This document shows positions 1,150 through 33,002 of a DNA stretch of 44,717 nt, piece after piece. This DNA comes from Chloroflexota bacterium (lineage in GTDB: Bacteria; Chloroflexota; Chloroflexia; Chloroflexales; Roseiflexaceae), in assembly GCA_018969485.1 (NCBI GenBank), contig JAGWYG010000021.1, positions 1 to 44,717 on the forward strand, written 5' to 3'. Within the stretch, counting starts at the first letter, position 1. Every line of letters starts with the position of its first letter. Below the pieces are notes generated by a model. That model had not been told where the DNA came from, made no database searches, and saw nothing but the letters and a program-made list of their open reading frames with translations. The position numbers and the translations under genes are program-made.

Positions 1150-1166
1150 TCAATCCCCCAGATCTG

Positions 1167-2541: not shown

Positions 2542-2575
2542 CGATTGGCCGGTTGGCGGACGTGCGCCATGGGTG

Positions 2576-2890: not shown

Positions 2891-2893
2891 CTA

Positions 2894-3280: not shown

Positions 3281-3291
3281 GAAGTCGTTGA

Positions 3292-3306: not shown

Positions 3307-3326
3307 TTATGGTGAGGGAATTGACG

Positions 3327-3950: not shown

Positions 3951-3966
3951 ACAGGAGGTGAGTACC

Positions 3967-5349: not shown

Positions 5350-5448
5350 CGCGGGCGCCCCGCGGCGTCGCGCAGGGAGGCGGTCGCGTCGGGCCGCAGC
5401 GCGAATCGCTGGCCTGAGCGCGCCAGGCGCCCCATCGGCCTGGGCGGC

Positions 5449-5478
5449 CGCGAGCATCGGCGACGGACGATGCTCGCG
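5449..5478. terminator. Hairpin between convergent genes
   Basis: An 11-bp perfect stem (cgcgagcatcg with cgatgctcgcg) and an 8-nt loop, 100 nt after the membrane-protein stop. No T-tract follows, so termination is plausible but not certain. Confidence 0.5.
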
Positions 5479-5512
5479 CGCCGGCCCGCGGCCACGCGGT
5501 GATGCACATGCC

Positions 5513-5532
5513 CCCCGCGCCACCACGCGGGG
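5513..5532. terminator. GC-rich hairpin at the 3' end of the aminotransferase gene
   Basis: Perfect 7-bp stem ccccgcg/cgcgggg with a 6-nt loop, 8 nt beyond the minus-strand aminotransferase stop. Serves either or both convergent genes. Confidence 0.45.
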
Positions 5533-5540
5533 CGTGCGCG

Positions 5541-10926: not shown

Positions 10927-11889
10927 ATGATCTGCATGGCGGTGCCCGAGATCGAGACGATCGCGCTGGCTGAGGTGCGCGATACCCGCGACGTGGGGGT
11001 GGTGACGAGCGGGCCGGCATGGGCCGCGGCGCATCGCGCGGGCCTGCACCTCGCGCCAGCGTGGACCGACGCGCCGGTCGATGCCAGCGAGCCGGCATTC
11101 GCCGCGCTGGCCGCGCGCTGCCCCGCCGGTGTGGCAGTCATCTATGGCGTGGGTGGCGGGCTCGCCGCCGACGCCGCCAAGTACGTGGCACGTCACCACA
11201 GCCTGCCGCTGATCCTCATCCCGACGGCGCTCTCGGTCGATGCGCATCTCACCTGGGCCAGCGGCGTGCGCCGCGATGGCTGCATCACCTACCTGCCGAC
11301 CGGCGCGGCGCAGCGCGTGCTGGTCGATACGGCGCTGATCGCCGCGGCACCGCCGGGAGTGCGGGCGGCCGGCATCTGTGATCTGCTCTCGATCGCCACC
11401 GGCACGTGGGACTGGCACCATGCCGAGGCGCGTGGCCAGAACCCGCCGGAGCAGGCCTACCTGCCCTGGGCTGCCGCGCTGGCCGGCGAGATCCTGGCAG
11501 CCAGCCTGATCGTCGCCCCCGGCGCTGGTCGTGGCGAGCCGGCCGGGCTGCTCGATCTGCTGCGGCTGCTGGCGCTCGAGGTGCAGCTGTGCAACCTGCT
11601 CGGCCACAGCCGCCCCGAGGAGGGCTCCGAGCACTACCTGGCGTACGCGCTCGAGGCGCACCCCGCGATCGGCGCCGGCCATGCCCATGGCGATCTCGTC
11701 GGCCCGGCGATCATCCGCGCCGCCACCTGGCAGGGCCAGGCGGTTGCGCCGCTGCACGACGCGCTCGTCGCTGCCGGCGTGCCGCTCGACCGCGTGCCGG
11801 CAGCGGTGCTCGACGACGTCGAGCAGACCCTGCCGCAGTATGTGCGCCGCCACCGTCTGGCGTTCGGCATCGCACACGAGCTGTCATGA
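10927..11889 (+). CDS. Glycerol-1-phosphate dehydrogenase-like (EgsA/AraM family)
   Basis: A 320-residue member of the iron-containing/dehydroquinate-synthase-like dehydrogenases. It has the NAD-binding VIYGVGGGLAADAAKYVA, substrate loop LIPTALSVDAHLTW, and three metal-ligand regions: Asp in GICDLLSIATGTWDWHHAE, His in EEGSEHYLAYALE and His in GAGHAHGDLVGPA. Family members reduce dihydroxyacetone phosphate to sn-glycerol-1-phosphate (archaeal lipids; AraM in Bacillus). Substrate specificity here is inferred only. ATG 10927 follows GGAGG at a short 4-nt spacing; ATG 10942 is too far away. Third gene of the operon, 23 nt after the repeat protein and 13 nt before the macro-domain gene. Confidence 0.8.
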   Translation: MICMAVPEIETIALAEVRDTRDVGVVTSGPAWAAAHRAGLHLAPAWTDAPVDASEPAFAALAARCPAGVAVIYGVGGGLAADAAKYVARHHSLPLILIPTALSVDAHLTWASGVRRDGCITYLPTGAAQRVLVDTALIAAAPPGVRAAGICDLLSIATGTWDWHHAEARGQNPPEQAYLPWAAALAGEILAASLIVAPGAGRGEPAGLLDLLRLLALEVQLCNLLGHSRPEEGSEHYLAYALEAHPAIGAGHAHGDLVGPAIIRAATWQGQAVAPLHDALVAAGVPLDRVPAAVLDDVEQTLPQYVRRHRLAFGIAHELS

Positions 11890-11902
11890 TGAGGAGGCTA
11901 CC

Positions 11903-13222
11903 GTGCAGTCACGAACGTATGTCGTCGGCCGATCGCGCATTCAGCTGATCTTCGGTGATATCACTCATGCCACGACCGAGGTGGTCGTCAGCTCCGACGA
12001 TGTGCTGCTCTCGATGGGCGGTGGAGTGTCTGCGGCGATCCGCCATGCTGGCGGCGCAAGCATCGCGACGGATGCCGCCAAGCTGACGCCTGCGCGAGTC
12101 GGCGATGTGATCGTCTCGACGGCCGGGAATCTGCGGGCAAAGTATGTGCTGCATGCCATCACGCTGGGCGTCACAGACGACAGGCTCCCGATGGACCTGA
12201 TCGTGCGTCAGACGACACATCGCGTCATGCAGCTGCTCCCGCTGCTCGGCTGCACTTCGGTCGCATTCCCGGCGATCGGCGCCGGGGTTGCGCGCATCCC
12301 CTACGAGGTCGTGGCATCGCAGATGGCTGCCGTGCTGGTCGATAACCTGATCGACGACCCTGCGGCCTACCGCGTCGAGCTATGGCTCAGCGGCAGGGCC
12401 GGGCACATCGAGCCGCATGCGTTCTTCGCATTCTTCGAGGCGTTTGCGACGCGCCTCATGGGGGTCGCGACCGCGGCCGCACCGGGGATGGTGATCCTGC
12501 AGCCGCCGGGTGTGTCGCCGACGCCGATGGACGCGCACCAGGTGGCTGAATCCGAACGGCACCACCGCGTCTACGAGATGTTGCGGCACCTCGACGCCCG
12601 GCGCGATCAGCTCGAAGCCCGGCTGCTCGCGGCGCTCACCGCGACCGATCATCATGCCGATCAGCTGGTCTCGCAGCTGCGCAGCCACCTCGCGGATGTC
12701 GGGCAGCTCCGCAGCACCTACGCCGCCGAACTCGCCACGCTGGCCAAGGACGACGCTGCATCAGCCGACTCGGTCTTCGTCAGCTCGACCTATGTCGATC
12801 TCAGCGATCACCGCAAGCAGGTGCGCAGCGTCATCGACCGCTTGCAGATGCGGTTTGTCGGCATGGAAGAGTTCATCGCGACGGAGCATGCCCCGGTCAA
12901 TCTGATCCGACAGAAGGTGCAGGAGAGCCAGATTTATTGCGGTATTCTCGGCATGCGCTATGGCTCCGTCGATCCGGGCACAGGTCTCTCGATGACCGAA
13001 CTGGAATATCGGCAGGCGATCGCAAGCGGTAAACGCATCTGCATGTTTGTCATGAGCGATGGCGCTCCGATCACGCCCAGCATGGTGGAGCGCGATCCGG
13101 ACGCCTATCGTAGCCTGATCGACTTCAAGCAGCGGGTGTTGCAGTCACATGTGTGTGCCCTGTTCACCGATCCGCAGGATCTGGCGACCAGGGTCGAAGC
13201 GGCCCTGAGGCCGAGCGCCTGA
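11903..13222 (+). CDS. Macro domain-coiled coil-DUF4062 fusion protein
   Basis: A 439-residue three-part protein. Residues 5-175 look like a macro domain (ADP-ribose binding): IQLIFGDITHATTEVVVSSD, LSMGGGVSAAIRHAGG, VAFPAIGAGVARIPYE. Residues about 210-285 are charged and helical (coiled coil). From residue 290 on SVFVSSTYVDLSDHRKQVRS, RFVGMEEF, IYCGILGMRYGSVDPGTGLS, MTELEYRQAIASGKRICMFV follow DUF4062, a domain otherwise seen at the N-terminus of NACHT/STAND proteins and in TEP1. GTG 11903 follows GAGGAGG at 5 nt. Codon use is slightly less GC-biased than in its operon partners, which may mean separate ancestry. A role in ADP-ribose/NAD-linked signalling or defence is inference from the domains; the macro Asn-Asn usually seen after GDIT is SerSerAsp here. 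Confidence 0.82.
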   Translation: MQSRTYVVGRSRIQLIFGDITHATTEVVVSSDDVLLSMGGGVSAAIRHAGGASIATDAAKLTPARVGDVIVSTAGNLRAKYVLHAITLGVTDDRLPMDLIVRQTTHRVMQLLPLLGCTSVAFPAIGAGVARIPYEVVASQMAAVLVDNLIDDPAAYRVELWLSGRAGHIEPHAFFAFFEAFATRLMGVATAAAPGMVILQPPGVSPTPMDAHQVAESERHHRVYEMLRHLDARRDQLEARLLAALTATDHHADQLVSQLRSHLADVGQLRSTYAAELATLAKDDAASADSVFVSSTYVDLSDHRKQVRSVIDRLQMRFVGMEEFIATEHAPVNLIRQKVQESQIYCGILGMRYGSVDPGTGLSMTELEYRQAIASGKRICMFVMSDGAPITPSMVERDPDAYRSLIDFKQRVLQSHVCALFTDPQDLATRVEAALRPSA

Positions 13223-18370: not shown

Positions 18371-18876
18371 TTGTTAAGGTGCACACGGCAACAGACGCCC
18401 CGCGGTAGACGATCGTGCGGCGCGCTGCGCCGATTCCATCGGTGCACACGGGACCGATCATGATGAAACGTATGGCCCATCATACTTGCTTTCGCTATCT
18501 TCTGTCAAGATAGAGTTGCGCGATGGTCGTGCGCCGACGGTCCGGCGCGTTGTCAGGCGCCAGCGGCCTCGCCGGATTCGTGCGGGCTCCTGGCTGCGAG
18601 CGACGGCGGTGATGACCGGCCTGACGGCGATGTGCCGGCGATTCTACTACAACTTGCGGCGCCCGGGCGCGATGATGATGGCGCCGGCGCTACCCCCCCC
18701 GTCTGCGGCCAGCGCTCGTGCAATCGCTGACGTTGCGACGAAAAGCCCTCAGTTGTGGGTTTGTTGCCGGCTATAGTGGAATCAGCAGCCAGCAGTGAGC
18801 ATCGCCGGAGCGCAACCGCCGATGGCGTCACACCGGCCAGCCAGGGAGCGTCGGGACTGAAGCGGGGGAGCATGCG
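18371..18876. other. Divergent promoter region between rny and the helicase cassette
   Basis: About 500 nt without a gene. It holds the rny promoter, a 7-bp inverted repeat (ctatctt/aagatag, 18495-18513) overlapping its -35, and on the plus strand TATAGT at 18772-18777, a possible -10 for the cassette about 100 nt before its first start codon. No sRNA or riboswitch was recognised. Confidence 0.5.
18479..18508 (-). promoter_or_regulatory. Sigma-70-type promoter of rny
   Basis: Reading the minus strand: TTGACA (18508-18503), 18-nt spacer, TATGAT (18484-18479). The -35 hexamer sits in the loop and arm of an inverted repeat (18495-18513), so a regulator could compete for it. About 130 nt separate it from the GTG start. 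Confidence 0.65.
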
Positions 18877-21321
18877 ATGGGTGTCGGGCATCAGGATGGC
18901 GGGGCGATTCTCGAGGCGATCTGGCGCGAGGCACGGGCACTGCTCGACGAGCGGTCCGCCGGGATCGTCGCGGAGCGCAACGGCATCGCCAGCGGGGACA
19001 TCACCAGTCTCGAGCAGCTCGGTCAGCGCTATCAGATCACCCGCGAGCGGGTGCGCCAGATCGAGGAGGCGGCCTATCGTACGCTGCGTTCGGCGGCGCT
19101 CGGGCACCTGACGCAGCTGTCTGGCCGGCTGGCGCAGGCCGGCGGCGGGCTGCTGACGCCTGATGAGGTCGTGCGCATCCTCGAGCCCGGGCGGGCGGCC
19201 GATGCGGAGGCCGATCCGGCGGCCCATGCCCGCCTGCGCCTCGCCCTGCGGCTGCTCGACGACTACCAGGCCATCGCGCGGACGCCATGGATCCTTGTGC
19301 GCGGCGCGCTGGCCGAAGCGACGGTCGGCGTGCTGCCTGGCCTGTACCTGATCCTGTGCGGGTTGCTGAAGCACATGCCCGGCGAGCGCGATGCCGGTTT
19401 CAGGCTGGCGGTGATGCGCCGCGCGGCGCAGCTGCCGACGTTCGCCCAATTGCCGCCTGGCGACATCGGCGTGGTGGTCGATGCCCTGCTGCGCATGCCC
19501 GACCAGCGCGGCGCGCCGGGCATGGCGGCGGGCGCCATCGATCCGCCGGCGCGTCACGCGCCGGCGCGTGGCGTGCGGCAGGCGCATCCACCGCCCGCAC
19601 CGCCAGCGCCGCCCGCGATGGCTCCCGACGAGCAGCCAGACGATTACACCCGGTGGAACGAGGCGATCGTCGCCTATGTCACGGCCACCGCCCGGCCCGG
19701 CGATCCGGTGTATCTGAGCATCGACCAGGAGCTGGCCGACGAGCTGCGCGAGCAGCTGGAGCAGCGCTCCGGCCGGCCGGTCGCCGATCTGGTGCGTGCG
19801 GTGCGCCAGCGCATGCTGATCGGCGGGGAGTTCCTGATCGAGCGCGTCGTGGGCACCGACCGGGCAGGCGCGCCGCTGGGCGTCGCATTCCTGGCCACGA
19901 TGGTCATGGCGGCCGCACAGATGGGCGGCGACGATGCACGCAACATTGCATCGAATGACTACTTCACCAAGTTCAACACGCTGTTCGCGCTGGTGCCCGC
20001 CGGCAACGGCCGGCCCGACGGGCTGCGGAAATACGGCGAGGAAGCGCTGTGGATCAGCTGGAACGACTGGCTGTGCGCCCGGGGACTGTCCCCCAGCGCA
20101 CGGGGCGGCGACGGGCCACAGCGATACATCAATTACCCGATCTCGCAGGCGCTGCTGCGCGGCACCGACCGCGATCACCTGGTGCGGATCTTCGCCGAGC
20201 GGCGCTGGGCCGCCGACACCGATCCGGTGACGCTCATGGCGCTGCTGCGCCGGCAGGGCGCGCTGGTCACCGTCCATCTCGGCGATCTGCTCAAGGATGC
20301 GTCGCCACGCGCCGGCGCCATCGCCGATGTGATCCACGCGGTGTTCACCGCATATGACGACCGGCAGCCCGGCAGCCGCGCGCGCCGCCGCGGCGGTTTC
20401 GCCGGCCTGGTGCGCAGCGAGGCGCCGCTCGGTGGGGCGCGCTATGCGGTGATGCCGGCCATGCCACGCCACGGATCATTTGCTGCGCAGCAGGTGCTGG
20501 TGCGGGGCGTGGCCGTCGCGCTGCGCGTCGGCCGCGCCGGGTGGTACCAGCCGATCGGCGATGTCAGCGCCGCCGAGCTCGATGATGGGACTGAATATCC
20601 CCTCGTCGGCGCGACGCGCGACGCCATTCGCCTGCCGCAGCGCAACTACTGGATCTGCGTCCCGGACCCCGAGGCGCCCGAGACTGGCGACTGGGGTAGC
20701 TGGGGGCGCGTGACGCTCGGCGAGCCGTTCCTGATCCTGTGCCGCGACGGCATCCGCGAGGATCTGTATCGGCTGCGCGATGAGCACCTCATTCGCTGGA
20801 GCGCCGAACGCCCGCTCGACGACTACCCCGGATGGCACGAGTTCGATGGCTGCCAGATCGTCTCGAACCTGTGGGATGCCGTCACGCTCAAGGATCCGAC
20901 GCTGCAGGAGGCGCTGCGGCCCCAGACGCGTATGGGGATCGTGTTCGGCGGCGGCGTCCGGCTCGGCGGCCAGCGCTGGCTGGCAGGCCATGGGCCGCAG
21001 ATCAGGGTCGTGGCGTTCGAGGATGATGCGGAGCTGACGATCCACGCCGGCGATGCGGATGGGCCGGTCATCAGCGCACAGCACGTGCGCACCAACCAGC
21101 CGATCGAGCTGCGCTGGCCGCGCGCAGGGGCGTATTGGGTGCGTGCCAATGTGCTCGGCACCATCACCGAGCGCGCGCTCGAGATCGTCCATGCCGACGG
21201 GCTCAGCCTGACGGAGGATGTGCCGCCGCTGTGGCTCGAGCTCGCCGACGCGCGGCTGTCGGGTGCATGGCTGGTGCCGCATGATCCGTCGGATGACGAT
21301 GCGGCGCCAGGGCCGGCATGA
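18877..21321 (+). CDS. Sigma-region-4-like HTH fused to large unknown protein (cassette gene A)
   Basis: An 814-residue protein. Residues 44-72 (SLEQLGQRYQITRERVRQIE and following) are a clear sigma-70 region 4.2 helix-turn-helix; no other sigma region is present, so it is not a sigma factor. Residues 75-215 are helical; 220-250 is a Pro/Ala-rich linker. Residues 255-480 form a second domain with NDYFTKFNTLFALVPAG, EEALWISWNDWLCARGLSP and YINYPISQALLRGTDRDHLV, reminiscent of unannotated proteins in phage-defence islands. The C-terminal 300 residues are beta-rich. No nuclease, kinase or methylase motif seen. ATG 18877 has GGGGGAG at 6 nt. First of three cassette genes; 145 nt to gene B. Likely the DNA-recognition or regulatory part of the system, by inference. 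Confidence 0.82.
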   Translation: MGVGHQDGGAILEAIWREARALLDERSAGIVAERNGIASGDITSLEQLGQRYQITRERVRQIEEAAYRTLRSAALGHLTQLSGRLAQAGGGLLTPDEVVRILEPGRAADAEADPAAHARLRLALRLLDDYQAIARTPWILVRGALAEATVGVLPGLYLILCGLLKHMPGERDAGFRLAVMRRAAQLPTFAQLPPGDIGVVVDALLRMPDQRGAPGMAAGAIDPPARHAPARGVRQAHPPPAPPAPPAMAPDEQPDDYTRWNEAIVAYVTATARPGDPVYLSIDQELADELREQLEQRSGRPVADLVRAVRQRMLIGGEFLIERVVGTDRAGAPLGVAFLATMVMAAAQMGGDDARNIASNDYFTKFNTLFALVPAGNGRPDGLRKYGEEALWISWNDWLCARGLSPSARGGDGPQRYINYPISQALLRGTDRDHLVRIFAERRWAADTDPVTLMALLRRQGALVTVHLGDLLKDASPRAGAIADVIHAVFTAYDDRQPGSRARRRGGFAGLVRSEAPLGGARYAVMPAMPRHGSFAAQQVLVRGVAVALRVGRAGWYQPIGDVSAAELDDGTEYPLVGATRDAIRLPQRNYWICVPDPEAPETGDWGSWGRVTLGEPFLILCRDGIREDLYRLRDEHLIRWSAERPLDDYPGWHEFDGCQIVSNLWDAVTLKDPTLQEALRPQTRMGIVFGGGVRLGGQRWLAGHGPQIRVVAFEDDAELTIHAGDADGPVISAQHVRTNQPIELRWPRAGAYWVRANVLGTITERALEIVHADGLSLTEDVPPLWLELADARLSGAWLVPHDPSDDDAAPGPA

Positions 21322-21463
21322 GCGCCGGCTGTGAGAATCGCGCGCTACGATCCAGCGGATGACGACGGGGCGCCGGTGGCGGCGGAGCGAACGGTGGAGA
21401 CCGACGACAGCGCAGGGAGAGCGAGATGAGCGCGCGGGGCATCGCTCCGCGCCGGGGAGGCTG
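21322..21463 (+). other. Short gap with an imperfect copy of the gene A 3' end
   Basis: Between genes A and B. About 38 nt from 21348 repeat, imperfectly, the end of gene A near 21281 (protein HDPSDDDAAP versus YDPADDDGAP). A 32-codon frame (GTG 21330 to 21428) covers it and could be a relic of a longer gene A tail. Confidence 0.45.
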
Positions 21464-21466
21464 ATG

Positions 21467-22783
21467 ATGCCGCGATGGTATCGGGCGTATGAGGCGCACG
21501 GCAGGCTGAAGCTCAAGCTTGATCAGCTACGTGGTCTGATCGAACGCCAGCGAATGGGCGATGTTGTGCCGGTCCTGCGCGTCGAGCGTGCGCCGGGCAA
21601 CCAGTACTACCTGTTCCTCGGCATCGAGCACGAGACCATCGGCGAGATGCCTGAGTGGGTGCGCGACGTCCTGGATCGCGCCAACTTTCTGGGACGTCCG
21701 ATCGACAAGCCGTTCACGCTCGATGAGATCCGGTCGATGGTCGGCAGCGAAGTGGTCGTTCACGACTACATGCGGCTGCTCCCGTTTCACCGCACCGACC
21801 GCCCGCCGATCGCCGCCGCCGACGGTGCCGCCGAGCTCGATGAGGGACACCCCCAGGCCATCGACGAGAGCGACCGGTGCCAGACATTCGTGCAGCTCCT
21901 GTCGGCGCTCGGCAGCGGTTCCATCGCGACGCTGCAGCGCATCTGGCACGAACTGGGCGGGGGACCGGGCCGCAGCCTGACGCGCATGCTGCGCCTGCTC
22001 GGCTACCTCGAGACGGATCGGACGGGACGGCACTGGGCGATGGCGCCCACCGTCTTCGTGCCGATCGCACACGGGCCGCATGCGGGCGCCGTGCTGCTGT
22101 GCGGCCGCCGCGACCAGCGGCTGGTCGCGGCGCTGGCCGCGGCGTTCCAGGTCGAGCACGTGATGCAGCCGCATGGTGTCGGCCCTGCGGCATGCATCAT
22201 CCATGACGCCACGCCCGCTGCGCTGGTGCGCACGGCGGCGGAGCAGCGGGTCACCGCGCGGGCGATGGACGACCTCGGCGCGCGCTTGGCGCGGGCGCTG
22301 CCCGATCTCGGCGGCTGGGTCGAGCGTCTCGAGCATATTCCCGGCGTACATCCCGGGCGGTTCAGCGTCGCGCGCTACGATGGCCGCGAGTTCGCCCCGG
22401 TCGCGTTCAGCAGCGGGCAGAGCGGATTGTACGACCTGCGCACCCGCCACAGCCGCGGCGAGCCCACTGCCCAGGACCGGGCCGTCGAGTACACCCTGCT
22501 GTATCACGCGCCGACCGGTCGCTGGTTGCGCGGCGACTGGCACGGCATGCGCTATGCCGCCATCGATTGGGCCGGCATCGCCTGCCCCATCCAGTACGAT
22601 CCGGCGACGGGATGGCTGCGCGTCGATGCCCAGCGCCGCTGGCCCGAGCTGTATGAACGCGCCCTGGTCCTGGCGACTGGCCGGCTGCCGACGTGGCGCA
22701 ACGATGGCTGGGAGTACGAGGGGATCGATCCGCAGCTCATCGCAACCCTGACGCCGAAACTGAATCTGGTACGAGAGGAGTGA
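21467..22783 (+). CDS. Unknown protein with winged-helix-like core (cassette gene B)
   Basis: A 438-residue soluble protein. N-terminus MPRWYRAYEAHGRLKLKLDQ then VLRVERAPGNQYYLFLGIEH and KPFTLDEIRSMVGSEVVVHD. Residues about 145-200 (TFVQLLSALGSGSIATLQRI, then LTRMLRLLGYLETDRTGRHW) have the pattern of a winged helix. The C-terminus GEPTAQDRAVEYTLLYHAPT and WPELYERALVLATGRLPTW was not recognised but looks like a conserved block. No catalytic motif. Tandem ATGs at 21464 and 21467; GGGGAGG at 21454-21460 favours the second (6 nt). It ends 1 nt before the helicase start, so genes B and C are translationally coupled. Probably a structural or loading partner of the helicase, by context only. Confidence 0.78.
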   Translation: MPRWYRAYEAHGRLKLKLDQLRGLIERQRMGDVVPVLRVERAPGNQYYLFLGIEHETIGEMPEWVRDVLDRANFLGRPIDKPFTLDEIRSMVGSEVVVHDYMRLLPFHRTDRPPIAAADGAAELDEGHPQAIDESDRCQTFVQLLSALGSGSIATLQRIWHELGGGPGRSLTRMLRLLGYLETDRTGRHWAMAPTVFVPIAHGPHAGAVLLCGRRDQRLVAALAAAFQVEHVMQPHGVGPAACIIHDATPAALVRTAAEQRVTARAMDDLGARLARALPDLGGWVERLEHIPGVHPGRFSVARYDGREFAPVAFSSGQSGLYDLRTRHSRGEPTAQDRAVEYTLLYHAPTGRWLRGDWHGMRYAAIDWAGIACPIQYDPATGWLRVDAQRRWPELYERALVLATGRLPTWRNDGWEYEGIDPQLIATLTPKLNLVREE

Positions 22784-22784
22784 C

Positions 22785-25700
22785 ATGATGATGGTTGATC
22801 TGATCGGTGCGCACCACCGGCTCGCCGAGATGTACCGGCTCTACGTCAACAGCGCGCTGCCGCTGCGTTCGATCGAGCTCGGCGAGGAGCGGGACCGCCT
22901 GCTCAGCCGACCCGGCATGCTCAGCCAGCCTCCGCTGGTCGAGCCGGTGCCGCGCTACCGATCGTCGGGCATGAACCTCGCCGCCGCGACGCGCGGGCTC
23001 GCCGACGACTATGCTGATCTCGCCCAGCTTGGGCGACAGCTGTTCGGCGATTCGCTGACCCTGTATCAGCACCAGGTCGCCAGCCTCGAGGCGGCGATCA
23101 CGCGCCGCAACGACATCGTCGTCACCACTGGCACCGGTTCGGGCAAGACCGAATGCTTCCTCCTGCCGCTGTTCGCCCAGCTCGCCAGCGAGTCGCGCGG
23201 CTGGCCGGCAGCCGGGGCGGTGCCGGCGGGCCGGAGCTGGTGGTGCGACAATCGGCCGCGGGTGGCGCAGTGGCAGCACATGCGCCGCCCCGCCGCCATG
23301 CGCGCGCTGGTGCTGTACCCGCTGAATGCGCTGGTCGAGGATCAGCTGCGACGCCTGCGGCTGGCGCTCGACAGCGACGAGACGCACCGCTGGCTCGACC
23401 GGGCGCGCGGCGCCAACCGCATCACGTTCGGCCGCTACACCGGCCAGACGCCGGTCGCCGGGTCGCCGGCCTCGCCGGCAAAGCTCGCCGAACTGCGCCG
23501 CACGTTGCACGACCTTGATAATCAGTGGAATCAGCTGATCCGCCCGGACGCCTATCACGCCGGCGACCGGGAGGTGCTGAGCTACGCGCCACGCCTCGAT
23601 GGCGGCGAGATGTGGTCGCGCTGGGATATGCAGGCGACGCCGCCGGACATCCTGATCACCAACTACTCGATGCTGAACATCATGCTGATGCGACAGCTCG
23701 AGGAACCGATCTTCGAGCAGACGCGCCGCTGGCTCGCCGAGCCCGGCCATCCCGAGCGCGTCTTCACGCTGATCGTCGACGAGCTCCATGCCTATCGCGG
23801 GACGCCCGGCACCGAGATCGCCTACATCCTGCGCCTGCTGTTCGCGCGGCTGGGGCTGACGCCAGACTCGCCGAAGCTGCGCATTCTGGCGACCAGCGCC
23901 AGCATCAGCGACGACGGCTCCGGGCGGCGGTTCCTGCGCGAGTTCTTCGGCCGCGACCGGTTCGAGTTCATCGGCGGCGCGCAGGATGTGCCGGAGATGA
24001 CGGGCGCCGCGAATATCAGCCGGTTTCGGCCGGCGCTGGCCACGTTTGCCGAGACCCTCGCACAACCGGGGAAGTCGGTGGATCCGACGGCGCCGGCGGC
24101 CGGGCAGGCGATGACGCGGCTGGCAGACGCGCTGGGCGCAGCGCCATCCGACGACCCGCCGGCGGTCCGCCTCAGCGCGGCATTGCAGCGGCACAACGCT
24201 GCGGATGCGCTGCGTGCCGCGTGCCACGACGGTAGTGGCATCCGCGCCACGGTCCTCGACGCCATCGCCACGCGGCTGTTCGGCGACGGCGAGGGTGCGG
24301 CGCGCGCCTGCCACGGGCTGCTGCTCGCACTCGGCCTGTCGCGCGCCGATGACGGCTCCCGGGCGCTGGTGCCGGTGCGCGGGCACCTGTTCTTCCACAA
24401 CCTCAGCCAGATCTGGGCCTGCAGCAACCCGCAGTGCCGCCCGGCCGACATCGCCGACGTCGACCCGCAGCGCCCGATCGGCACGCTGTTTGCGTCCCAC
24501 CGGCTCAGTTGCCCGCACTGTTCATCCCGGGTGCTCGACATGCTCAGCTGCGAGCTGTGTGGCGATGTGTTTCTCGGTGGCTACCGCGTGACGGCCGGCG
24601 CCAACGCCGGGAAGAGCACGTATTTGATGGCGGACAGCCCGGCGCTCGGCATGATGCCCGACCGCGTGTCGCTCGAGCGCAGCTACCAGAGCTACGCGGT
24701 CTTCTGGCCGACGCCCGACGATGTTGAGCCACAGGATACCAGTTGGGTGCATCAGACCCAGCCCTGGCGCTGGGATCGGGCGCTGCTGACGCCGGGGACT
24801 GGCCGCATTCGCCAGACGGCGCAGGCGGCAGGCCCCGGCGAGGTCGTGGGTTTCCTGTACACTGCGCAGCGTGTCAGAAAGCCGACGCTGGACGCGCTGC
24901 CGCACAAGTGCCCGCGCTGCGATGCCGATTACCGCCGGCGCGATCAGTATCCGACGCCGCTGCGCTTCCAGCAGATCGGGTTCCAGAAGGCGGCGCAGGT
25001 GCTCGCCAGCGGCATCGTGCGCGAGATGGCGGCGGGTGACGACCATGCCCGGCGCCAGCGCAAGCTGGTGGTCTTCACCGACAGCCGGCAGGACGCCGCC
25101 AAGCTCGCGGCGGGCGTTGAGCGCGATCACTACCGCGACATGGTGCGGTTTGCCCTGTTCGACGTGCTCACGACGTACTGGTCGGATCTGCCGGCATACC
25201 TGCATGGCGAGTTCGGCCGGCGGGACGACGTCACCGAGCGCGTCGCCGCGCTCAACCCCCGGCTCGCAGACGCGCTGCGCGTCACTGCTGGCGACGCCCA
25301 GGCGCAGCAGCGCTTCGGCGGCGCGCTGGACGGACAGGTCCGCGAGGAGGCGCTTCGGTGGGCCAGTCGCTTTGCGGTGGGGAACCGCCAGGCGGCGCAG
25401 GCGTGGCAGCAGATCCTGCGCGGCTATCCGCATGGCCCGATTCCGCTGCCGGTGCTGCGCCAGCAGGTGTATCACGCACTGCTGCGCGCCGGCATCGCGC
25501 CCGGCGGTTCCGATCTCAGCAGCCTCGAGATCCAGCTCCAGGACAACACGACGGCTCCCTGGTTCACGTGCTATGGCTGGGATGCCGGCGAGCCAACGGT
25601 CAGGTTGAATCTCAGCCAGGCGCATCGCCAGCACATCGCGCACCTCGAGGCCAGGCTCACCGAAGAGCTGATGTATGCGCTGTTCCCCCGCTTCGCGAGG

Positions 25701-28430
25701 ACCAACGAGGGCGTGGCGCTGACGCGGGTGACTATCGCCGACGATTCTGCCGATGATGAGCGCCAGCGCGTCGTCGCCGAGGCAATCTTGCGGCAGATGG
25801 GCGTGCGCCGCCTGCACACCTTCAATAGCGCCCACAGCAGTGCCCACAAGCTTGGGGCTGATGCGCAGCTGCGAGGGTACAGCCGGCGCCTGCTGCACCA
25901 TCTCGGGCTTGAGGCCGCTGAGTGTACTGCCATCACGAATCTGCTCACCCGCAGCCGGGCGGCGGTCGGCTCGGAGTCTGGCCTGGTGCTCGAGCCGGAG
26001 CACCTCGCCGTCGTGCCCCCCACGACCCCGCCGGGTGAACGCGTCGCGGGGTTTCGCTGCCCGCGCTGCAATGGCTTCTACCTCGCCGACACGCGCGTCT
26101 GCCCCGAGTGTAGCCGTGCGAGCCGTCTCGAGCCAGCCAGGCTCGCCAGCCGCGACGACTACTACAACGCCCTGCGCACGAGCTACCGCAGCGTCGTGCG
26201 GATGCAGTGCGCCGAATTGACCGGCCAGACCGATGCCGCCGAGCGGCCGCGCCGGCAGCGACGGTTCCAGGAAGTGTTCCTCGACAAGGACATCGCACAG
26301 GTGCAGGGCATCGATGTGTTGAGCGTCACCACCACCATGGAGGCCGGCGTCGACATCGGTGCGCTGAATGCGGTGATGATGGCCAACATGCCGCCGCGCC
26401 GCTTCAATTACCAGCAGCGCGTCGGCCGCGCCGGCCGGCGTGGCAACCCGGTGGCGCTGGCGCTGACGTTCTGCCGCAGCCGCAGCCACGATGACTACTA
26501 CTTCGCCCGGCCCGAACAGATCACCGGCGATCCGCCACCGCCACCCTACATCGATCTGCGGAGCTTCCCGATCGTCCGACGGGTGTTCGTCAAGGAAGTG
26601 CTGCGCGTCGCGTTCGCCGCTACTCCCGACGCGCGCGTGACCAGCGACGGCGATGATGTCCACGGCGAGTTTGGCCTGGTAGCCGACTGGCCGGCACATC
26701 ATCGGGCGCTGGTCGCCCGGTGGATCGATGCCCCGGCACACGCGGCGCTCCTCGCGCGCATCGCGACTGACCTGACCCGCGGTCATCCGGGGCCCGGTGA
26801 TCCGGCGGCCGGTGATTGGTGCGACCGGCTGGTGGCGTTTGCCAGAGACGGGCTCGTGCGTGATATCGATGCGATCGCAGCCGATGATTCGTACCGGCAG
26901 GTGCGGCTGAGCGAGCGCCTGGCCAACGCCGGGCTGTTGCCGATGTTCGGCTTTCCGACGCGCTCGCGATCGCTCTACATCACCTGGCCTACGTGGCAGC
27001 GCAATGGCATGACCGCCCGCACGATCGAACGCGATCTGGATATCGCCATCAGCCAGTTCGCGCCGGGCTCCGAGACGGTGCACGACAAGGCGGTGCATAC
27101 GGCGGTCGGCGTCGCCGACTTCACCAGCCGGGGTGGACGCGAGGCGTTCTATCCGCCGTTTGCTGCGCCGAATCCCCAGCTGCTGGGGTACTGCGAGTAT
27201 TGCCATGCGGTGTCGCTGCACCGCCCCGAGGAGCTCCCCGCACACGACGCCAATGCCCGTGGCGTGTGCCGGGTCTGCCAGCAGCCGATGCTGCGCGTCA
27301 CCGACGCCCGCGAGCCGCGGGATTTCTTCACCGACCTGACGCCACGCGATTTTGACGGGATGTTCGAGTGGCAACCCCGCGCGACCCGGCCGCTGATCAC
27401 CATCGACGATGTGGTGACGGAGTCTGATGCGGCGCAGCCATGTGCGAACGCGATGATCAACGCGCGCTACACCGATATCTACACCGTGAACGACAACGAG
27501 GGTCGGGGCGGATTCGAGTTCAAGTCAGTACTCTACCAGCGATCAATCGTGCGTGGCGCGGTGATCGCGCACGATGCTGTCCGCAATGGTCAGCGCTTCG
27601 GCGCCTTCGACGCGGGCAAGCGGATCGCGCTGCTCGCCCGCCGCAAGAGCGATGTACTCCTGGCGGGCATCACCGATTGGCCGGCGGGCGTCTTCGCCTC
27701 ACCGGTCACGATCGAGGGGCGCGCGGCCTGGTATTCGTTCGCGTTCTGGCTGCGCACAGCCGCCAGCGCGATGCTCGACGTCGATCCGCAGGAGTTGCAG
27801 GCAGGCTTGCGCACCGCCGACGATCCACGCTACGGCGTCATCGGGCAGGCGTTCCTCAATGATCGGCTGGAGAATGGCGCCGGCTACAGTCGCTTCCTCG
27901 CAGATCCGCACCAGTTTGTCCGGCTGCTGGAGCATGCCGACGAGTCTGCGGCGGCGGGCCTGCTCTGCCGCTGGCTCGATGTCGAACGCCATGGCGACTG
28001 CGATGCCTCGTGCAATGTGTGTCTGCGCGACTTCGCCAACATGGCGTACCACGGGCTGCTGGATTGGCGGCTGGCGCTCGATCTGGCACGGCTGGCCCGC
28101 GATGCCGGCACTGTCATCGACCTCACCAGCCCCTGGGGGGCGCAGCCGAATCCCTGGCGCCGCCTGGCCGATGGGCCGGATTCGCCGGTCGGTCGTACGC
28201 TGCGGGCGATCGGCTACACGTATGCCGGGGTGTTCGCCGGTCTGCATGGCTTTCAGGTGCCGCGACGCAGCGGAACGCTGCTGGTGCGCCATCCGCTGTG
28301 GACCGATGCGCATCCGGTGTGGCAGGCGGCGTGCGACGATCTGGCGCGGCAGGGGCGATCGGGTGACGTCCGTGCGGCAAATCCGTTCATGGCGCTGCGC
28401 GTGCCGACCGAGTATGCGGCGGGTGGATGA
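22785..28430 (+). CDS. Giant DEAD/DEAH helicase with DUF1998-type C-terminus (cassette gene C)
   Basis: An 1,881-residue SF2 helicase. Walker A VTTGTGSGKTE (114-123), motif Ia ALVLYPLNALVEDQLRRL, ITNYSMLNIML, DELH at 332-335, LATSAS near 370; second RecA lobe with VVFTDSRQDAAKLA near 763, VTTTMEAGVDIGALNAV and QQRVGRAGRRGN near 1208. Several zinc knuckles are inserted: CSNPQC and CPHCSS/CELCGD (545-600), KCPRCD (about 707), CPRCNGF/CPECSR (about 1090-1112), CEYCHA/CRVCQQ (1470-1500). The end CDASCNVCLRDFANMAYHGL (about 1737) is the DUF1998 four-Cys signature. This layout is that of DruE (Druantia), COG1205 and the DrmA/DrmB pair of DISARM. ATG 22785, 22788 and 22791 are tandem; 22785 is used. 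All ATPase motifs look intact. Confidence 0.9.
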   Translation: MMMVDLIGAHHRLAEMYRLYVNSALPLRSIELGEERDRLLSRPGMLSQPPLVEPVPRYRSSGMNLAAATRGLADDYADLAQLGRQLFGDSLTLYQHQVASLEAAITRRNDIVVTTGTGSGKTECFLLPLFAQLASESRGWPAAGAVPAGRSWWCDNRPRVAQWQHMRRPAAMRALVLYPLNALVEDQLRRLRLALDSDETHRWLDRARGANRITFGRYTGQTPVAGSPASPAKLAELRRTLHDLDNQWNQLIRPDAYHAGDREVLSYAPRLDGGEMWSRWDMQATPPDILITNYSMLNIMLMRQLEEPIFEQTRRWLAEPGHPERVFTLIVDELHAYRGTPGTEIAYILRLLFARLGLTPDSPKLRILATSASISDDGSGRRFLREFFGRDRFEFIGGAQDVPEMTGAANISRFRPALATFAETLAQPGKSVDPTAPAAGQAMTRLADALGAAPSDDPPAVRLSAALQRHNAADALRAACHDGSGIRATVLDAIATRLFGDGEGAARACHGLLLALGLSRADDGSRALVPVRGHLFFHNLSQIWACSNPQCRPADIADVDPQRPIGTLFASHRLSCPHCSSRVLDMLSCELCGDVFLGGYRVTAGANAGKSTYLMADSPALGMMPDRVSLERSYQSYAVFWPTPDDVEPQDTSWVHQTQPWRWDRALLTPGTGRIRQTAQAAGPGEVVGFLYTAQRVRKPTLDALPHKCPRCDADYRRRDQYPTPLRFQQIGFQKAAQVLASGIVREMAAGDDHARRQRKLVVFTDSRQDAAKLAAGVERDHYRDMVRFALFDVLTTYWSDLPAYLHGEFGRRDDVTERVAALNPRLADALRVTAGDAQAQQRFGGALDGQVREEALRWASRFAVGNRQAAQAWQQILRGYPHGPIPLPVLRQQVYHALLRAGIAPGGSDLSSLEIQLQDNTTAPWFTCYGWDAGEPTVRLNLSQAHRQHIAHLEARLTEELMYALFPRFARTNEGVALTRVTIADDSADDERQRVVAEAILRQMGVRRLHTFNSAHSSAHKLGADAQLRGYSRRLLHHLGLEAAECTAITNLLTRSRAAVGSESGLVLEPEHLAVVPPTTPPGERVAGFRCPRCNGFYLADTRVCPECSRASRLEPARLASRDDYYNALRTSYRSVVRMQCAELTGQTDAAERPRRQRRFQEVFLDKDIAQVQGIDVLSVTTTMEAGVDIGALNAVMMANMPPRRFNYQQRVGRAGRRGNPVALALTFCRSRSHDDYYFARPEQITGDPPPPPYIDLRSFPIVRRVFVKEVLRVAFAATPDARVTSDGDDVHGEFGLVADWPAHHRALVARWIDAPAHAALLARIATDLTRGHPGPGDPAAGDWCDRLVAFARDGLVRDIDAIAADDSYRQVRLSERLANAGLLPMFGFPTRSRSLYITWPTWQRNGMTARTIERDLDIAISQFAPGSETVHDKAVHTAVGVADFTSRGGREAFYPPFAAPNPQLLGYCEYCHAVSLHRPEELPAHDANARGVCRVCQQPMLRVTDAREPRDFFTDLTPRDFDGMFEWQPRATRPLITIDDVVTESDAAQPCANAMINARYTDIYTVNDNEGRGGFEFKSVLYQRSIVRGAVIAHDAVRNGQRFGAFDAGKRIALLARRKSDVLLAGITDWPAGVFASPVTIEGRAAWYSFAFWLRTAASAMLDVDPQELQAGLRTADDPRYGVIGQAFLNDRLENGAGYSRFLADPHQFVRLLEHADESAAAGLLCRWLDVERHGDCDASCNVCLRDFANMAYHGLLDWRLALDLARLARDAGTVIDLTSPWGAQPNPWRRLADGPDSPVGRTLRAIGYTYAGVFAGLHGFQVPRRSGTLLVRHPLWTDAHPVWQAACDDLARQGRSGDVRAANPFMALRVPTEYAAGG

Positions 28431-28440
28431 TGCCTATGCA

Positions 28441-28482
28441 CTGCGCCATCCGCCCGTGCCATGCGCCGGACGGATGGCGCAG
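28441..28482 (+). terminator. Hairpin after the helicase cassette
   Basis: A perfect 12-bp stem (ctgcgccatccg / cggatggcgcag) with an 18-nt loop starting 10 nt after the helicase stop. No T-tract, so possibly a transcript-end stabiliser rather than a classical intrinsic terminator. Confidence 0.55.
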
Positions 28483-29582: not shown

Positions 29583-29803
29583 CCCCTGCGTGCCTTCGTG
29601 GCTTCGTGTGACACACGTCCCCCGCCCCTGCGTGCCTTCGTGGCTTCGTGCCTTCGTGGCTTCGTGTGACACACGTCTCCCGCCCCTGCGTGCCTTCGTG
29701 CCTTCGTGGCTTCGTGTGACACACGTCCCCCGCCCCTGCGTGCCTTCGTGCCTTCGTGGCTTCGTGTGACACACGTCCCCCGCCCCTGCGCGACTTCGTG
29801 TGA
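29583..29803 (+). repeat. Nested tandem repeat array (42 bp frame with variable octamers)
   Basis: Units start cccctgcg at 29583, 29625, 29683, 29733 and 29783. Their lengths are 42, 58, 50 and 50, because the inner octamer ccttcgtg/gcttcgtg is present 2, 4, 3 and 3 times; the fifth, partial unit has one. Each full unit ends tgacacacgtc. There are no unique spacers, so it is not a CRISPR. Composition and period changes fit slippage of the octamers. Confidence 0.9.
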
Positions 29804-29850: not shown

Positions 29851-29882
29851 AGTGACAGAACACGTATCCGGGAGGGATGGTG

Positions 29883-32800
29883 ATGGCCATGTTGCAACTC
29901 ACCCTCTGCGGTGCTTTCCAGGCTACGCGTGGTTCGCAAGAGCTCGCCGAGCTGCGGACCAACCGGCTGCGCGCGATCATCGGCTACCTGGCCCTCGAAT
30001 CAGGCCGCGCGCACGAGCGCAGCCACCTCGCCAGCCTGTTCTGGCCCGACTCGCCCGAGGATCAGGCGATGGGCGCGTTGCGCCAGTCGTTGCACCGCAT
30101 CGGGCGCATCCTGGGCGGCGACGATGCGTCGGGCGCGACGCCGCTGCTCATCAGCCGTACCACCGTGCAGCTTGACCCCCGGCAGATCAATGTCGATGTC
30201 CTCGAGATCGAGCGCCGGCTGCACCTCTGCGACGCCCATCAGCACCGCAGCATCGCCGGTTGCAGCGCATGTGCCGTGCGGTTGCACGACGCGGTGACGC
30301 TGTACCGCGGCGAACTCCTCGCGGGGACGTATCACGATGGCAGCGATCTGTTTGAGGCCTGGCTGCGCGAGCGGCGCGAGCGTCTGGCCCGGCAGGTCTG
30401 TGATGCGCTCCGGGCGCTGGCGACCCACCGGCTACGGCGCCGCGCGTATGCCGAGGCGGCCCGGTCGGCGCGGGCCTGGCTGCAGCTGGAGCCGTGGCAG
30501 GAGTGCGCGCATCGGCTGCTGATCGAGGCGCTGGCGCGCGATGGCCAGCGGTCCGCCGCGCTCAGGCAGATCGATCGCTGCCACAAGGTGCTGCACGACG
30601 AACTGGGTGCCACACCCGAGGAGGCGACCGTCACGCTGGCGGCGCATGTGCGCCGTGGCACGCTCGTATCGGCTGATGCCCTGCCGCTTCCGGCCGCCCG
30701 CGAGGATGCTGTCGTGGGGCGTGCCGCCGACATTGCCTGGCTACACAGTCAGCTGGCCAATCCGGCGCATCGCTGGATCACCATCGTTGGTCCGGGCGGC
30801 GTGGGAAAGACGGCGCTGGTGCAGCATATCGCCGGGCACATGGCGTCATCGTTCGCCGAGGGCGTCCGGTTTGTCGCGCTGGACGATGTCGCTGATCTCG
30901 CTGATGCGGCCTTTGCGATCGGTCGCGCCCTCGGGCAGCAGTTCAGTGGGGATGATGTGCCGGCAGACGCCCTGCCCGGGGCGATCGCGCATCGCGATGT
31001 GCTGCTCGTCCTCGATGGCGTCGATCGCCTCGCGCCGTACGCTGCCTGGTTTGCGCGGCTCATCGAGGCCCAGACTGGACCGACGCTGATCCTGACGTCA
31101 CGGCGGCGCTTCGGCAGTCGTGCCGAGCTGGTGCTGATGCTCGGTGGATTGGCGACCCCGGCGCCGGACGCGCCGCCCGAGGCATCCTGCGATGCGGTCG
31201 AGCTGTTTCTCGCCCGGGCGATGGCGTTGCAGCCGATGCGCGACTGGCATGCCGAGCGTGCGGCGATCCAGCGGATCTGCCGGGCCGTTGATGGCTCACC
31301 GCTCGGCATCGGGCTCGCCGTATCGCAGGCGCGCGCAGTGCACTGTCAAGATCTGGCCGATGTGATCGAGCGGCGGCTGCAGCTGCTCGGTGGCACCGAG
31401 CAGGCGCTCCCCGAGCGCCATCACCGGCTGCTCGCCGTCTTCGACGAAATCTGGCAGGGCATGGCGCCACCGCAGCGCGCAGTCTTGCAGGCCCTCAGCC
31501 TGTTTTCCGGCGAGTTCTCGTGGCCGGCTGCCACGGTGCTCGCCGCCGAGGTCCTCGGCGAGCCCGATGTCGAGGCGGCAGTCCTGCGCACGCTCACCGA
31601 ACTGGCTGATCAGGCGCTGGTATATACCCAGCCGAATCAGCGCTATCGGATGCATGCGCTCCTGCGACAGTCGGTCGCAGCTATGCTGGAGGCCGACGTC
31701 GAGCGCGCGAACTGGCTGCGCGCCGCCCATCAGCGGTGGTTTCTCGGGATGCTCGATGCAGTGCGGCTCGGGGTGGTGAATCGCCGGGCGCGACGCTACG
31801 CGGCCACGCTCGCCGATGCGTTCGCCGACATCCGCAGCGCATGGGAGTGGGCGGTGGCTGTCGGCGATGGCGTGGCGCTCGATCATGCGGCATCGCCTCT
31901 GGTGGTGATGGCATCGTGCATCGGCCGGTACCGCGATGGCGCCAGCATGATGCATGCAGCCGCGACGGCCCTGATGGCCCGTGCCGGCGATGACCAGCCG
32001 GCGCGCCGGCGCTGCATGCGCCTGCTGCTCGGCGCCGCCGAGCTCTATCGTGCTGGTGGTGCGCTCAGCCAGATGTCCGAGTCCGTGGTGCTGGCACGCG
32101 CTCTGGCAGCGCCGGACGATAGCTCAGACGTGCTGTTGCCGCTGCTCGTCGCCGAGGGGACTGTCGCCTACGCCCTGGGTCAGCGCGCCGAGGCGGTGCA
32201 GCTGCTCACGGCAGCGCATGCACGCTGTGATGCGTCGACCGACCCCGCGATCGTGGCGCAGGTGGAGCACCAGCTTGGCATCACGCTGATGTTCCTCGGC
32301 GACCTCGAGGCGAGCGGGCACTGCATGGCTGCGGCGCTCGCCTGGTACCGGCAGCGCGATGACACGATCAGCGTGCTGCAGTGCCTCACGGTGCTGGCGC
32401 AGCTGCCGGCGCGCCGCGGCGACCTGCGCGCCGCCCTGCCACTGCTCGAGGATGTGCTGGTCGTGGCGCGCGAGCTCGATGATCCGCGCAGCCTGGCCGT
32501 GTCGCTGGTGAACGTCGGATCCGCACGGGCCGTGCTGGGATTCGATGACCTCACGACGGTACATCAGCTTGAGGAGAGTCTGGCAATTGTGCAACAGTTG
32601 GGCGATCAGGTGTCGCTGACCGGCGTACTCCACGCCGCCGCCTACGGATTCATTCATCTGGGGCGCTACCCGATCGCCGAACACCTGCTGGTGCGGGCGC
32701 TCCGCGTGGTCGACAGCCAACGGACGACGCCGGTGCTGCTCGAGCTCCTCGAGGGCGTCGGCGTCTTCGGCGCCCACACCGCGCGCCACCACCAGGCCGC

Positions 32801-33002
32801 CGTACTGCTGGCGCTGGTGGTGGCACACCCGACGACGACCGAGTTTGTGCGGCAACGGGCGGCGCGCGTGCTGCATGCCCTGCAGGTGCCCGCCGCCGAC
32901 GATGACATCGCTGCGGCGGCCGAAGCCGGGGCGCGCCTCGATCCGCTGGAGGCGCGACGCCGGCTGCTCATCGACGGCGGTCCACGCCTCGCGGCCTGGT
33001 GA
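29883..33002 (+). CDS. SARP/AfsR-like transcriptional regulator (BTAD, AAA, TPR)
   Basis: A 1,039-residue regulator. Residues 1-95 are an OmpR-type winged helix (LQLTLCGAFQATRGSQELAE, then RLRAIIGYLALES). Residues 100-250 are the bacterial transcriptional activation domain (LYRGELLAGTYHDGSDLFEA, LEPWQECAHRLLIEALARDG). A STAND-type ATPase follows, with VGPGGVGKTALVQHIAGHMA near 302, a Walker-B-like VLLVLDGVDRLAP and a C-terminal TPR stretch (about 620-1030). The family couples ligand or partner sensing by TPRs to activation of neighbouring genes. ATG 29883 is chosen since GGAGGG lies 6 nt upstream; ATG 29877 overlaps that site. Convergent with the GH151-like gene, 14 nt apart. Target unknown. 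Confidence 0.88.
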   Translation: MAMLQLTLCGAFQATRGSQELAELRTNRLRAIIGYLALESGRAHERSHLASLFWPDSPEDQAMGALRQSLHRIGRILGGDDASGATPLLISRTTVQLDPRQINVDVLEIERRLHLCDAHQHRSIAGCSACAVRLHDAVTLYRGELLAGTYHDGSDLFEAWLRERRERLARQVCDALRALATHRLRRRAYAEAARSARAWLQLEPWQECAHRLLIEALARDGQRSAALRQIDRCHKVLHDELGATPEEATVTLAAHVRRGTLVSADALPLPAAREDAVVGRAADIAWLHSQLANPAHRWITIVGPGGVGKTALVQHIAGHMASSFAEGVRFVALDDVADLADAAFAIGRALGQQFSGDDVPADALPGAIAHRDVLLVLDGVDRLAPYAAWFARLIEAQTGPTLILTSRRRFGSRAELVLMLGGLATPAPDAPPEASCDAVELFLARAMALQPMRDWHAERAAIQRICRAVDGSPLGIGLAVSQARAVHCQDLADVIERRLQLLGGTEQALPERHHRLLAVFDEIWQGMAPPQRAVLQALSLFSGEFSWPAATVLAAEVLGEPDVEAAVLRTLTELADQALVYTQPNQRYRMHALLRQSVAAMLEADVERANWLRAAHQRWFLGMLDAVRLGVVNRRARRYAATLADAFADIRSAWEWAVAVGDGVALDHAASPLVVMASCIGRYRDGASMMHAAATALMARAGDDQPARRRCMRLLLGAAELYRAGGALSQMSESVVLARALAAPDDSSDVLLPLLVAEGTVAYALGQRAEAVQLLTAAHARCDASTDPAIVAQVEHQLGITLMFLGDLEASGHCMAAALAWYRQRDDTISVLQCLTVLAQLPARRGDLRAALPLLEDVLVVARELDDPRSLAVSLVNVGSARAVLGFDDLTTVHQLEESLAIVQQLGDQVSLTGVLHAAAYGFIHLGRYPIAEHLLVRALRVVDSQRTTPVLLELLEGVGVFGAHTARHHQAAVLLALVVAHPTTTEFVRQRAARVLHALQVPAADDDIAAAAEAGARLDPLEARRRLLIDGGPRLAAW

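What the first reader, a model, noticed from the sequence alone, without database searches (positions are those of the whole stretch)
18877..28430. Three-gene cassette: sigma-region-4-like HTH protein, winged-helix-like protein, DUF1998 giant helicase
Seen: three co-directional genes; B and C are 1 nt apart, a divergent promoter region lies before them and a 12-bp hairpin after them. Known: giant DUF1998 helicases are the hallmark of Druantia (DruE) and related to DISARM DrmA/DrmB. Not seen: DruA-D, DruM, DruF, DruG, a PLD nuclease or a methyltransferase. Inference: this is either a Druantia/DISARM relative with unrecognised partners or a new helicase-based defence or genome-surveillance system in which a sigma-like HTH provides DNA recognition.
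Basis: partly seen in the sequence, partly recalled or inferred. Interest (0 to 1): 0.85.

Follow-up and report, generated by a model that had tools for sequence, protein, structure and literature searches.

The report
Divergent Druantia cassette with sigma-like domain
The three genes are a divergent branch of the known anti-phage system Druantia (types II/IV), found in at least seven bacterial phyla; its two unnamed partner proteins carry domains resembling parts of the transcription machinery (sigma factor and NusG), which suggests, but does not show, that this defence works on DNA that is being transcribed.

Summary
In detail: A (18877-21321), B (start corrected to ~21467, to 22783) and C (22785-28430) are co-directional coding genes. 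C matches PADLOC DruE4 end to end (1543 bits), A residues ~255-800 are DruF-like, and B's last ~240 residues are DruL-like. So this is a Druantia type II/IV relative, closest to type IV (DruE+DruF+DruL).

It differs from the canonical loci compared. DruF is shorter. DruL carries an extra N-terminal domain whose predicted fold and weak profile signal point to the NusG NGN domain; this was not detected in five canonical DruF proteins or two DruL proteins. In this Chloroflexota genus, and in one other Chloroflexales genome, DruF is fused to a sigma-70 region-4 domain.

A-B-C recur in that order in Chloroflexota, Cyanobacteriota, Deinococcota, Poribacteria, Armatimonadota, Bacillota and Chlorobiota, on plasmids and chromosomes, and their DruE proteins form one clade beside type IV. 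Distance matrices of A, B and C correlate (r 0.79-0.91).

The sigma domain is an accessory of this lineage, not the system's core. Defence is inferred from homology; no activity was tested. Verdict: new variant of a known kind, with a testable transcription link.

The parts
18750..18779 (+). conserved promoter-like block upstream of A (cAGTTGTGGG-N10-GCTATAGTGG), same spacing in the sister species
   Evidence: read directly; function inferred only
18877..21321 (+). gene A: DruF-like protein with a sigma-70 region-4 domain at its N-terminus (814 aa)
18940..19095 (+). sigma-70 region-4 domain (A residues 22-73); recognition helix TRERVRQIE as in principal sigma factors
   Evidence: dN/dS 0.59 against the sister species
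19132..19491 (+). helical domain of A, residues 86-205, unassigned, under purifying selection
19492..19632 (+). Pro/Ala-rich, poorly conserved linker of A (residues 206-252)
19639..21282 (+). DruF-like core of A (residues 255-802), conserved in all relatives
20926..21204 (+). Ig-like beta-sandwich at the end of the DruF core (A residues 684-776)
   Evidence: predicted fold, (Z 9.6, rmsd 2.3 over 83 residues; a common fold)
21467..22783 (+). gene B: DruL-like protein (438 aa from the likely start; ORF opens at 21359)
21467..21754 (+). NusG-NGN-like N-terminal domain of B (residues 1-96 from the likely start)
21845..22048 (+). winged-helix-like segment of B (residues 127-194)
   Evidence: predicted fold
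21965..22699 (+). part of B matching PADLOC DruL4
   Evidence: E 3.9e-11, profile 41-278 of 309
22785..28430 (+). gene C: DruE, giant SF2 helicase of the YprA family (1881 aa)
   Evidence: (PADLOC DruE4 1543 bits, profile 2-1816 of 1829)
23130..23150 (+). Walker A motif GTGSGKT of C
   Evidence: invariant in relatives
23778..23789 (+). Walker B / DExH-type motif DELH of C
   Evidence: invariant in relatives
26415..26438 (+). helicase motif VI (QRVGRAGR) of C
   Evidence: invariant in relatives
27999..28022 (+). C-terminal cysteine cluster of C (CDxSCxxC)
   Evidence: invariant cysteines
28441..28482 (+). hairpin after C (16 nt arms), terminator candidate without T tract

Best explanation
A-B-C is a divergent Druantia II/IV-type anti-phage system (DruF-DruL-DruE). 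DruE (C) is the ATP-driven SF2 helicase that works on invading DNA. A and B are its DNA-binding and adaptor subunits: a DruF core ending in an Ig-like sandwich, and a DruL with an NGN-like domain and a winged helix, which would choose or hold the target and license DruE. In this Chloroflexota genus a sigma-70 region-4 domain has been added to DruF as an extra DNA-contact module. Shown: sequence homology of all three to Druantia components, intact helicase motifs, conserved gene order, correlated divergence, purifying selection on the sigma domain. Inferred: that it defends against phages, that A and B bind DNA and load DruE, and that the output is block or destruction of phage replication intermediates as reported for Druantia III.
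For: C matches DruE4 over profile 2-1816 of 1829 and DruE2 over its full length, with helicase motifs invariant. A core matches canonical DruF (Nostoc plasmid type IV) with E 2e-44 over 475 of 561 positions; B residues ~149-440 match canonical DruL (E ~1e-18) and the C-terminal part of type II DruF (PADLOC). Same order A-B-C in seven phyla (plasmids). DruE clade of 22 cassettes, SH-aLRT 100, beside type IV. Distance matrices A/B 0.86, A/C 0.79, B/C 0.91, Mantel p 0.0005, the minimum possible with 2000 permutations. Defence context in some relatives: next to type III-A CRISPR genes, next to a type I R-M HsdR. Druantia III DruE prefers 3'-tailed DNA and acts late on replication intermediates (PMC13192584).
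Against: No experiment on this clade or on type IV was found. PADLOC DruF4 models cover only about 200-370 of ~700 positions of A, so the DruF match is remote by those models. The window locus is not in a defence island; neighbours are metabolic genes and RNase Y. Type II DruE is reported to have an inactivated C-terminal nuclease (PMC12458937), and no nuclease was recognised in A or B, so the effector step is open.
Confidence: 0.68

Rival explanations
1. Transcription-coupled defence: the NGN-like domain of B (and, where present, the sigma region-4 domain of A) docks the complex on RNA polymerase or promoter DNA, so that DruE is loaded at transcription bubbles or stalled polymerases on phage DNA.
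For: B's N-terminal fold has NusG NGN domains as best solved matches (Z 9.0, rmsd 2.8 over 89 residues). Independently the sequence profile of B finds only NusG among solved structures (E 0.14), and profile-profile comparison gives E 0.002, score 21.8, against at most 17.2 for 126 decoy slices and 9.1 for ACT domains. A carries a true sigma region 4 with the -35 recognition helix TRERVRQIE kept in both species of the genus.
Against: ACT domains are within 1 Z unit of NusG (8.3), so fold alone does not decide; HH-suite probability is only 14%; Pfam NusG does not hit B. The sigma domain is absent from most relatives, and in G077 the recognition helix has changed to TRAWISQIE. Both domains could be simple DNA- or protein-binding modules.
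Confidence: 0.2
2. Genome-maintenance helicase: the trio repairs or surveys host DNA, like the YprA-family repair helicase MrfA, and is not a defence system.
For: In the window the cassette sits at the same chromosomal site (between RNase Y and a BTAD/NACHT regulator) in two species of the genus, far from other defence genes.
Against: Patchy distribution: 6 of 158 genomes of the class have an A homologue and 8 of 400 in the phylum sample; plasmid copies in Oscillatoria, Calothrix and Deinococcus; broken copies in several cyanobacteria; DruE grouping with Druantia.
Confidence: 0.07
3. Incomplete hybrid system: the functional unit includes a divergent TGT-like / wHTH / BrxC-like ATPase module that lies beside A-B-C in many relatives; the window copy has lost it and may be weakened or use another partner.
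For: Module, or at least its ATPase, within 10 kb of A-B-C in about nine loci from Chloroflexota, Cyanobacteriota and Poribacteria; in 400 Chloroflexota genomes the strong TGT-subfamily matches are only in two A-B-C carriers, G050 and G051. Homologous parts are described as BREX-Related Capture systems (PMC12839542).
Against: The module's ATPase is absent from the window's genome and its sister, yet A-B-C is conserved there with intact motifs; most relatives lack it within 10 kb.
Confidence: 0.05

Closest known systems
Druantia type IV (DruE+DruF+DruL; PADLOC, PMC8565338)
   Same: three genes, DruF-DruL-DruE order in the reference locus L081; DruE homologous end to end; no DruM or DruG recognised in the window's flanks
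   Different: DruF core ~560 aa instead of ~660; DruL ~440 aa instead of ~300 because of an extra NGN-like N-terminal domain; sigma region 4 fused to DruF in this genus; DruE forms its own clade
Druantia type II (DruM, DruF, DruG, DruE; also called type IV CoCoNuT in PMC12458937)
   Same: A core and the end of B both match the single long type II DruF
   Different: DruF is two genes here; no methyltransferase DruM and no DruG recognised in the window
Druantia type III (DruH-DruE; PMC13192584, PMC13316683)
   Same: YprA-family DruE helicase as core; the type for which I found a worked-out mechanism
   Different: no DruH recognised; type III DruE has PLD nuclease domains; no relation of A or B to DruH was seen
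MZA system protein MzaA
   Same: a defence protein carrying a sigma region-4 domain
   Different: only ~50 residues align (MzaA 1.5e-9, 37 bits against cut-off 800); no other MZA gene recognised
NusG / Spt5 NGN domain
   Same: predicted fold and weak profile similarity of B residues 1-96
   Different: not hit by the Pfam NusG model; fused to winged helix and DruL
BREX-Related Capture systems (PMC12839542)
   Same: TGT (sometimes GNAT-fused), BrxC-like ATPase and DNA-binding protein occur next to A-B-C in relatives
   Different: module's ATPase absent from the window genome; PglZ and HerA were not searched systematically

Membership tests
Druantia (any type) | giant DruE helicase | tested here: met
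   DruE4 1543 bits, DruE2 1489 bits, near full length
Druantia type IV | DruF present | tested here: met
   DruF2 E 1e-25, DruF4 E 7e-18, partial coverage; canonical DruF E 2e-44 over 475/561 positions
Druantia type IV | DruL present | tested here: met
   (DruL4 E 4e-11, profile 41-278/309); B has ~140 extra N-terminal residues
Druantia type IV | no DruM or DruG | tested here: met
   no such hit among the neighbours scanned (not every small ORF was scanned)
Druantia type IV | passes PADLOC's own system rules | not testable with these tools
   HMMs were run, the rule files and thresholds were not available
Druantia type IV | anti-phage activity | not testable with these tools
   needs experiment
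Druantia type II | DruM and DruG present, single long DruF | tested here: not met
DISARM | DrmA/DrmB with methyltransferase and PLD nuclease | tested here: not met
   DrmA only over helicase motif, 34.8 bits; none of the partners found among the neighbours scanned
MZA | MzaA-E gene set | tested here: not met
   only the sigma region-4 stretch of MzaA matches
sigma-70 factor | region 2 and region 4 | tested here: not met
   region 4 only (29.1 bits, cut-off 24.1)
NusG NGN domain | match to Pfam PF02357 | tested here: not met
   no B locus listed at E<=10 in genomes that carry B
NusG NGN domain | NGN fold | tested here: inconclusive
   best structural and profile match, above all decoys, but ACT folds within 1 Z unit

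The most novel reading that the evidence does not exclude
A widespread, so far unnamed Druantia subtype in which NusG-like (all members) and sigma-like (Chloroflexales members) domains tie a helicase defence to RNA polymerase or to promoter DNA, so that invading DNA is recognised through its transcription.
Probability: 0.2. Interest if true: 0.82.

Novelty: new variant of a known kind. Interest (0 to 1): 0.55.

Why it matters
Druantia II/IV has no published mechanism that I found, and PADLOC lists DruF and DruL as 'unknown function'. A defined clade with assignable domains in both (NGN-like, winged helix, Ig-like, sigma region 4) gives concrete hypotheses for what they do, and a simple test: does the complex touch RNA polymerase or promoter DNA? 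It also refines annotation, since A and B are labelled 'hypothetical protein' in the three annotated plasmid records examined.

Tried and rejected
Alpha-CTD-like reading of the N-terminal domain of A in G050/G051/G077: looked plausible by eye, but Pfam RNA_pol_A_CTD did not hit it even at E<=10; dropped. First genome-contig scan with the single protein A found nothing; the alignment scan found 27 loci. Viral contigs: no relative. Foldseek of A and B against PDB: no match below E 0.001; VIA-align second look gave an Ig-like sandwich for A and NGN for B. Sequence profile of A against PDB: only weak QacR hits, E 0.03, not used. NGN-like domain in canonical DruF/DruL: not detected. Defence-island idea for the window: neighbours are RNase Y, sugar and amino-acid enzymes and a BTAD/NACHT regulator. 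Antisense ORFs over A-C rejected by codon-position GC.

Full report
What is there. The three genes are real and co-directional. Codon-position GC supports coding over all of A, B from about 21467, and C. B's likely start is 21464/21467, not 21359: homologues begin with 'RWY' and the first 108 bases of the ORF lack coding composition. A hairpin with 16-nt arms follows C. Upstream, RNase Y runs the other way. A block at 18750-18779 with a TATAGT hexamer is kept with the same spacing in the sister species while flanking bases differ (read); this looks like the operon promoter.

Identity of the genes. C matches PADLOC DruE4 across the whole protein with 1543 bits; helicase motifs are invariant in relatives. 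Pfam sees DEAD and Helicase_C but not DUF1998. A residues 252-459 match DruF2 and DruF4 (E down to 1e-25), and B residues 203-447 match DruL4 and the end of DruF2. With profiles built from the relatives, A's core matches the DruF of a canonical type IV locus on a Nostoc plasmid with E 2e-44 over 475 of 561 positions, and B from residue ~149 matches its DruL with E ~1e-18; in type II-like loci both match one long DruF.

Relatives. A scan of named genomes with the A-core alignment gave 27 loci. Across these, the plasmid records and whole genomes, B and C follow A in the same order in the relatives of this clade wherever the contig is long enough. Phyla: Chloroflexota, Cyanobacteriota, Deinococcota, Poribacteria, Armatimonadota, Bacillota, Chlorobiota. 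Several copies, mostly cyanobacterial, have broken frames. Within the class, 6 of 158 genomes have an A homologue, one of them weak. The DruE tree puts 22 cassettes in one clade (SH-aLRT 100), next to the type IV reference, with type II-like outside (quick method, few canonical references, composition bias noted by the tool). Distance matrices of A, B and C correlate (0.79-0.91, Mantel p 0.0005, the floor for 2000 permutations).

Sister species. G001 has the same site: RNase Y upstream (87% nt identity over ~720 bases), A (63% aa), C (75% aa over residues 180-1879), and the downstream BTAD/NACHT gene (70%). The cassette is stable in this genus. A's sigma and middle domains evolve faster than the core but under constraint (dN/dS 0.59, 0.51 against 0.32; Nei-Gojobori with Jukes-Cantor, rough at this GC content). 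The linker is unconstrained.

The sigma domain. It passes the Pfam cut-off and aligns with region 4 of principal sigma factors in solved structures. The recognition helix TRERVRQIE is intact in window and sister, altered in G077 (TRAWISQIE). No region 2 was found, so A is not a sigma factor. My profile found the domain only in window, G001 and G077; other Chloroflexaceae copies carry a different N-terminal domain, and copies outside Chloroflexota mostly start at the core. It is an accessory, not the system's core. Sigma-like HTH domains are also reported in BrxL (PMC12839542), and MzaA of MZA is called a sigma factor (PMC9523054).

B's N-terminal domain. AlphaFold models B at mean pLDDT 84. 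VIA-align ranks NusG NGN domains first (Z 9.0, rmsd 2.8 over 89 residues; ten of the first eleven rows are NusG), with ACT folds at 8.3, formally tied. Sequence breaks the tie: the B profile finds only NusG 2lq8 in the PDB (E 0.14), and hhalign gives NusG NGN E 0.002, score 21.8, collinear over 86 columns, against 9.1 for ACT and at most 17.2 for 126 decoy slices. Pfam NusG itself does not hit B and the HH-suite probability is 14%. I call it NGN-like, likely but not proven. It was not detected in five canonical DruF and two DruL proteins. Residues 127-194 form a winged-helix-like unit. A's model (mean pLDDT 75) has a helical core and an Ig-like sandwich.

Mechanism. For Druantia III, DruE is reported to load on 3'-tailed DNA, with DruH the likely sensor and PLD domains cutting (PMC13192584); in mycobacteria DruH-DruE blocks phage DNA circularisation and replication (PMC13316683). 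Type II DruE is reported to have an inactive nuclease domain (PMC12458937). I infer that A and B select or hold the DNA and license DruE, with DNA unwinding or displacement as output and host nucleases possibly finishing. Whether selection goes through RNA polymerase is the open question raised by the NGN-like and sigma domains.

A recurrent companion. In Chloroflexus, other Chloroflexota, Poribacteria and an Oscillatoria plasmid, a module of TGT-like protein (sometimes GNAT-fused), wHTH-like protein and BrxC/D-like ATPase lies beside A-B-C. Strong TGT-subfamily hits in 400 Chloroflexota genomes are only in A-B-C carriers G050 and G051. Similar parts define BREX-Related Capture systems (PMC12839542). 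The module's ATPase is absent from the window's genome and its sister.

Verdict. A genuine, widespread, divergent Druantia II/IV variant. Not a new class. The possible transcription link makes it worth a bench test.

Noticed in passing
L031 10776-16431, L032 5150-10709, L033 1734-7239, L057 3743-9945, L059 2051-7377, L060 3106-8442, L066 3767-9945, L027 15571-21778: TGT-like (DSGG motif, sometimes GNAT-fused) + wHTH-like + BrxC/D-like ATPase module beside A-B-C, divergent, co-directional or convergent; its ATPase is absent from the window's genome.
   Followed up: partly
L034 (G000:C58) 1370-6613 and 3-1430; L035 (G000:C81) 11-5977: Two more YprA/DruE3-like giant helicases in the window's own genome, one beside a DrmD/DpdE-like SNF2 protein, possibly ARMADA-like systems.
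   Followed up: partly
L046, L048, L051, L055, L063, L065: A-B-C copies with B or C broken into pieces (mostly Nostocales, one Syntrophaceticus), suggesting recent loss or sequencing errors.
   Followed up: no
window 29635-29800: Tandem repeat, 50-bp unit, 3.3 copies, 95% match, built of CCTTCGTG steps, between C and the next gene.
   Followed up: no
window 29877-33002: BTAD + NACHT/NB-ARC + TPR protein directly downstream of the cassette, conserved at this site in the sister species.
   Followed up: partly
window 11531-13222: ORF with Macro and DUF4062 domains.
   Followed up: no
L029 17115-21451; L079 15997-18999: A-B-C near type III-A CRISPR genes on a Deinococcus plasmid, and next to a type I restriction HsdR in a Chloroflexota genome.
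   Followed up: no
L031 8075-10459, L032 1186-4320, L033 8085-10910: Conserved ~125-residue N-terminal domain of unknown identity on DruF of Chloroflexaceae, alone or before sigma region 4.
   Followed up: partly
L080 771-5651, L059 1-2048: Second, diverged copy of the wHTH/ATPase pair near the first one.
   Followed up: no
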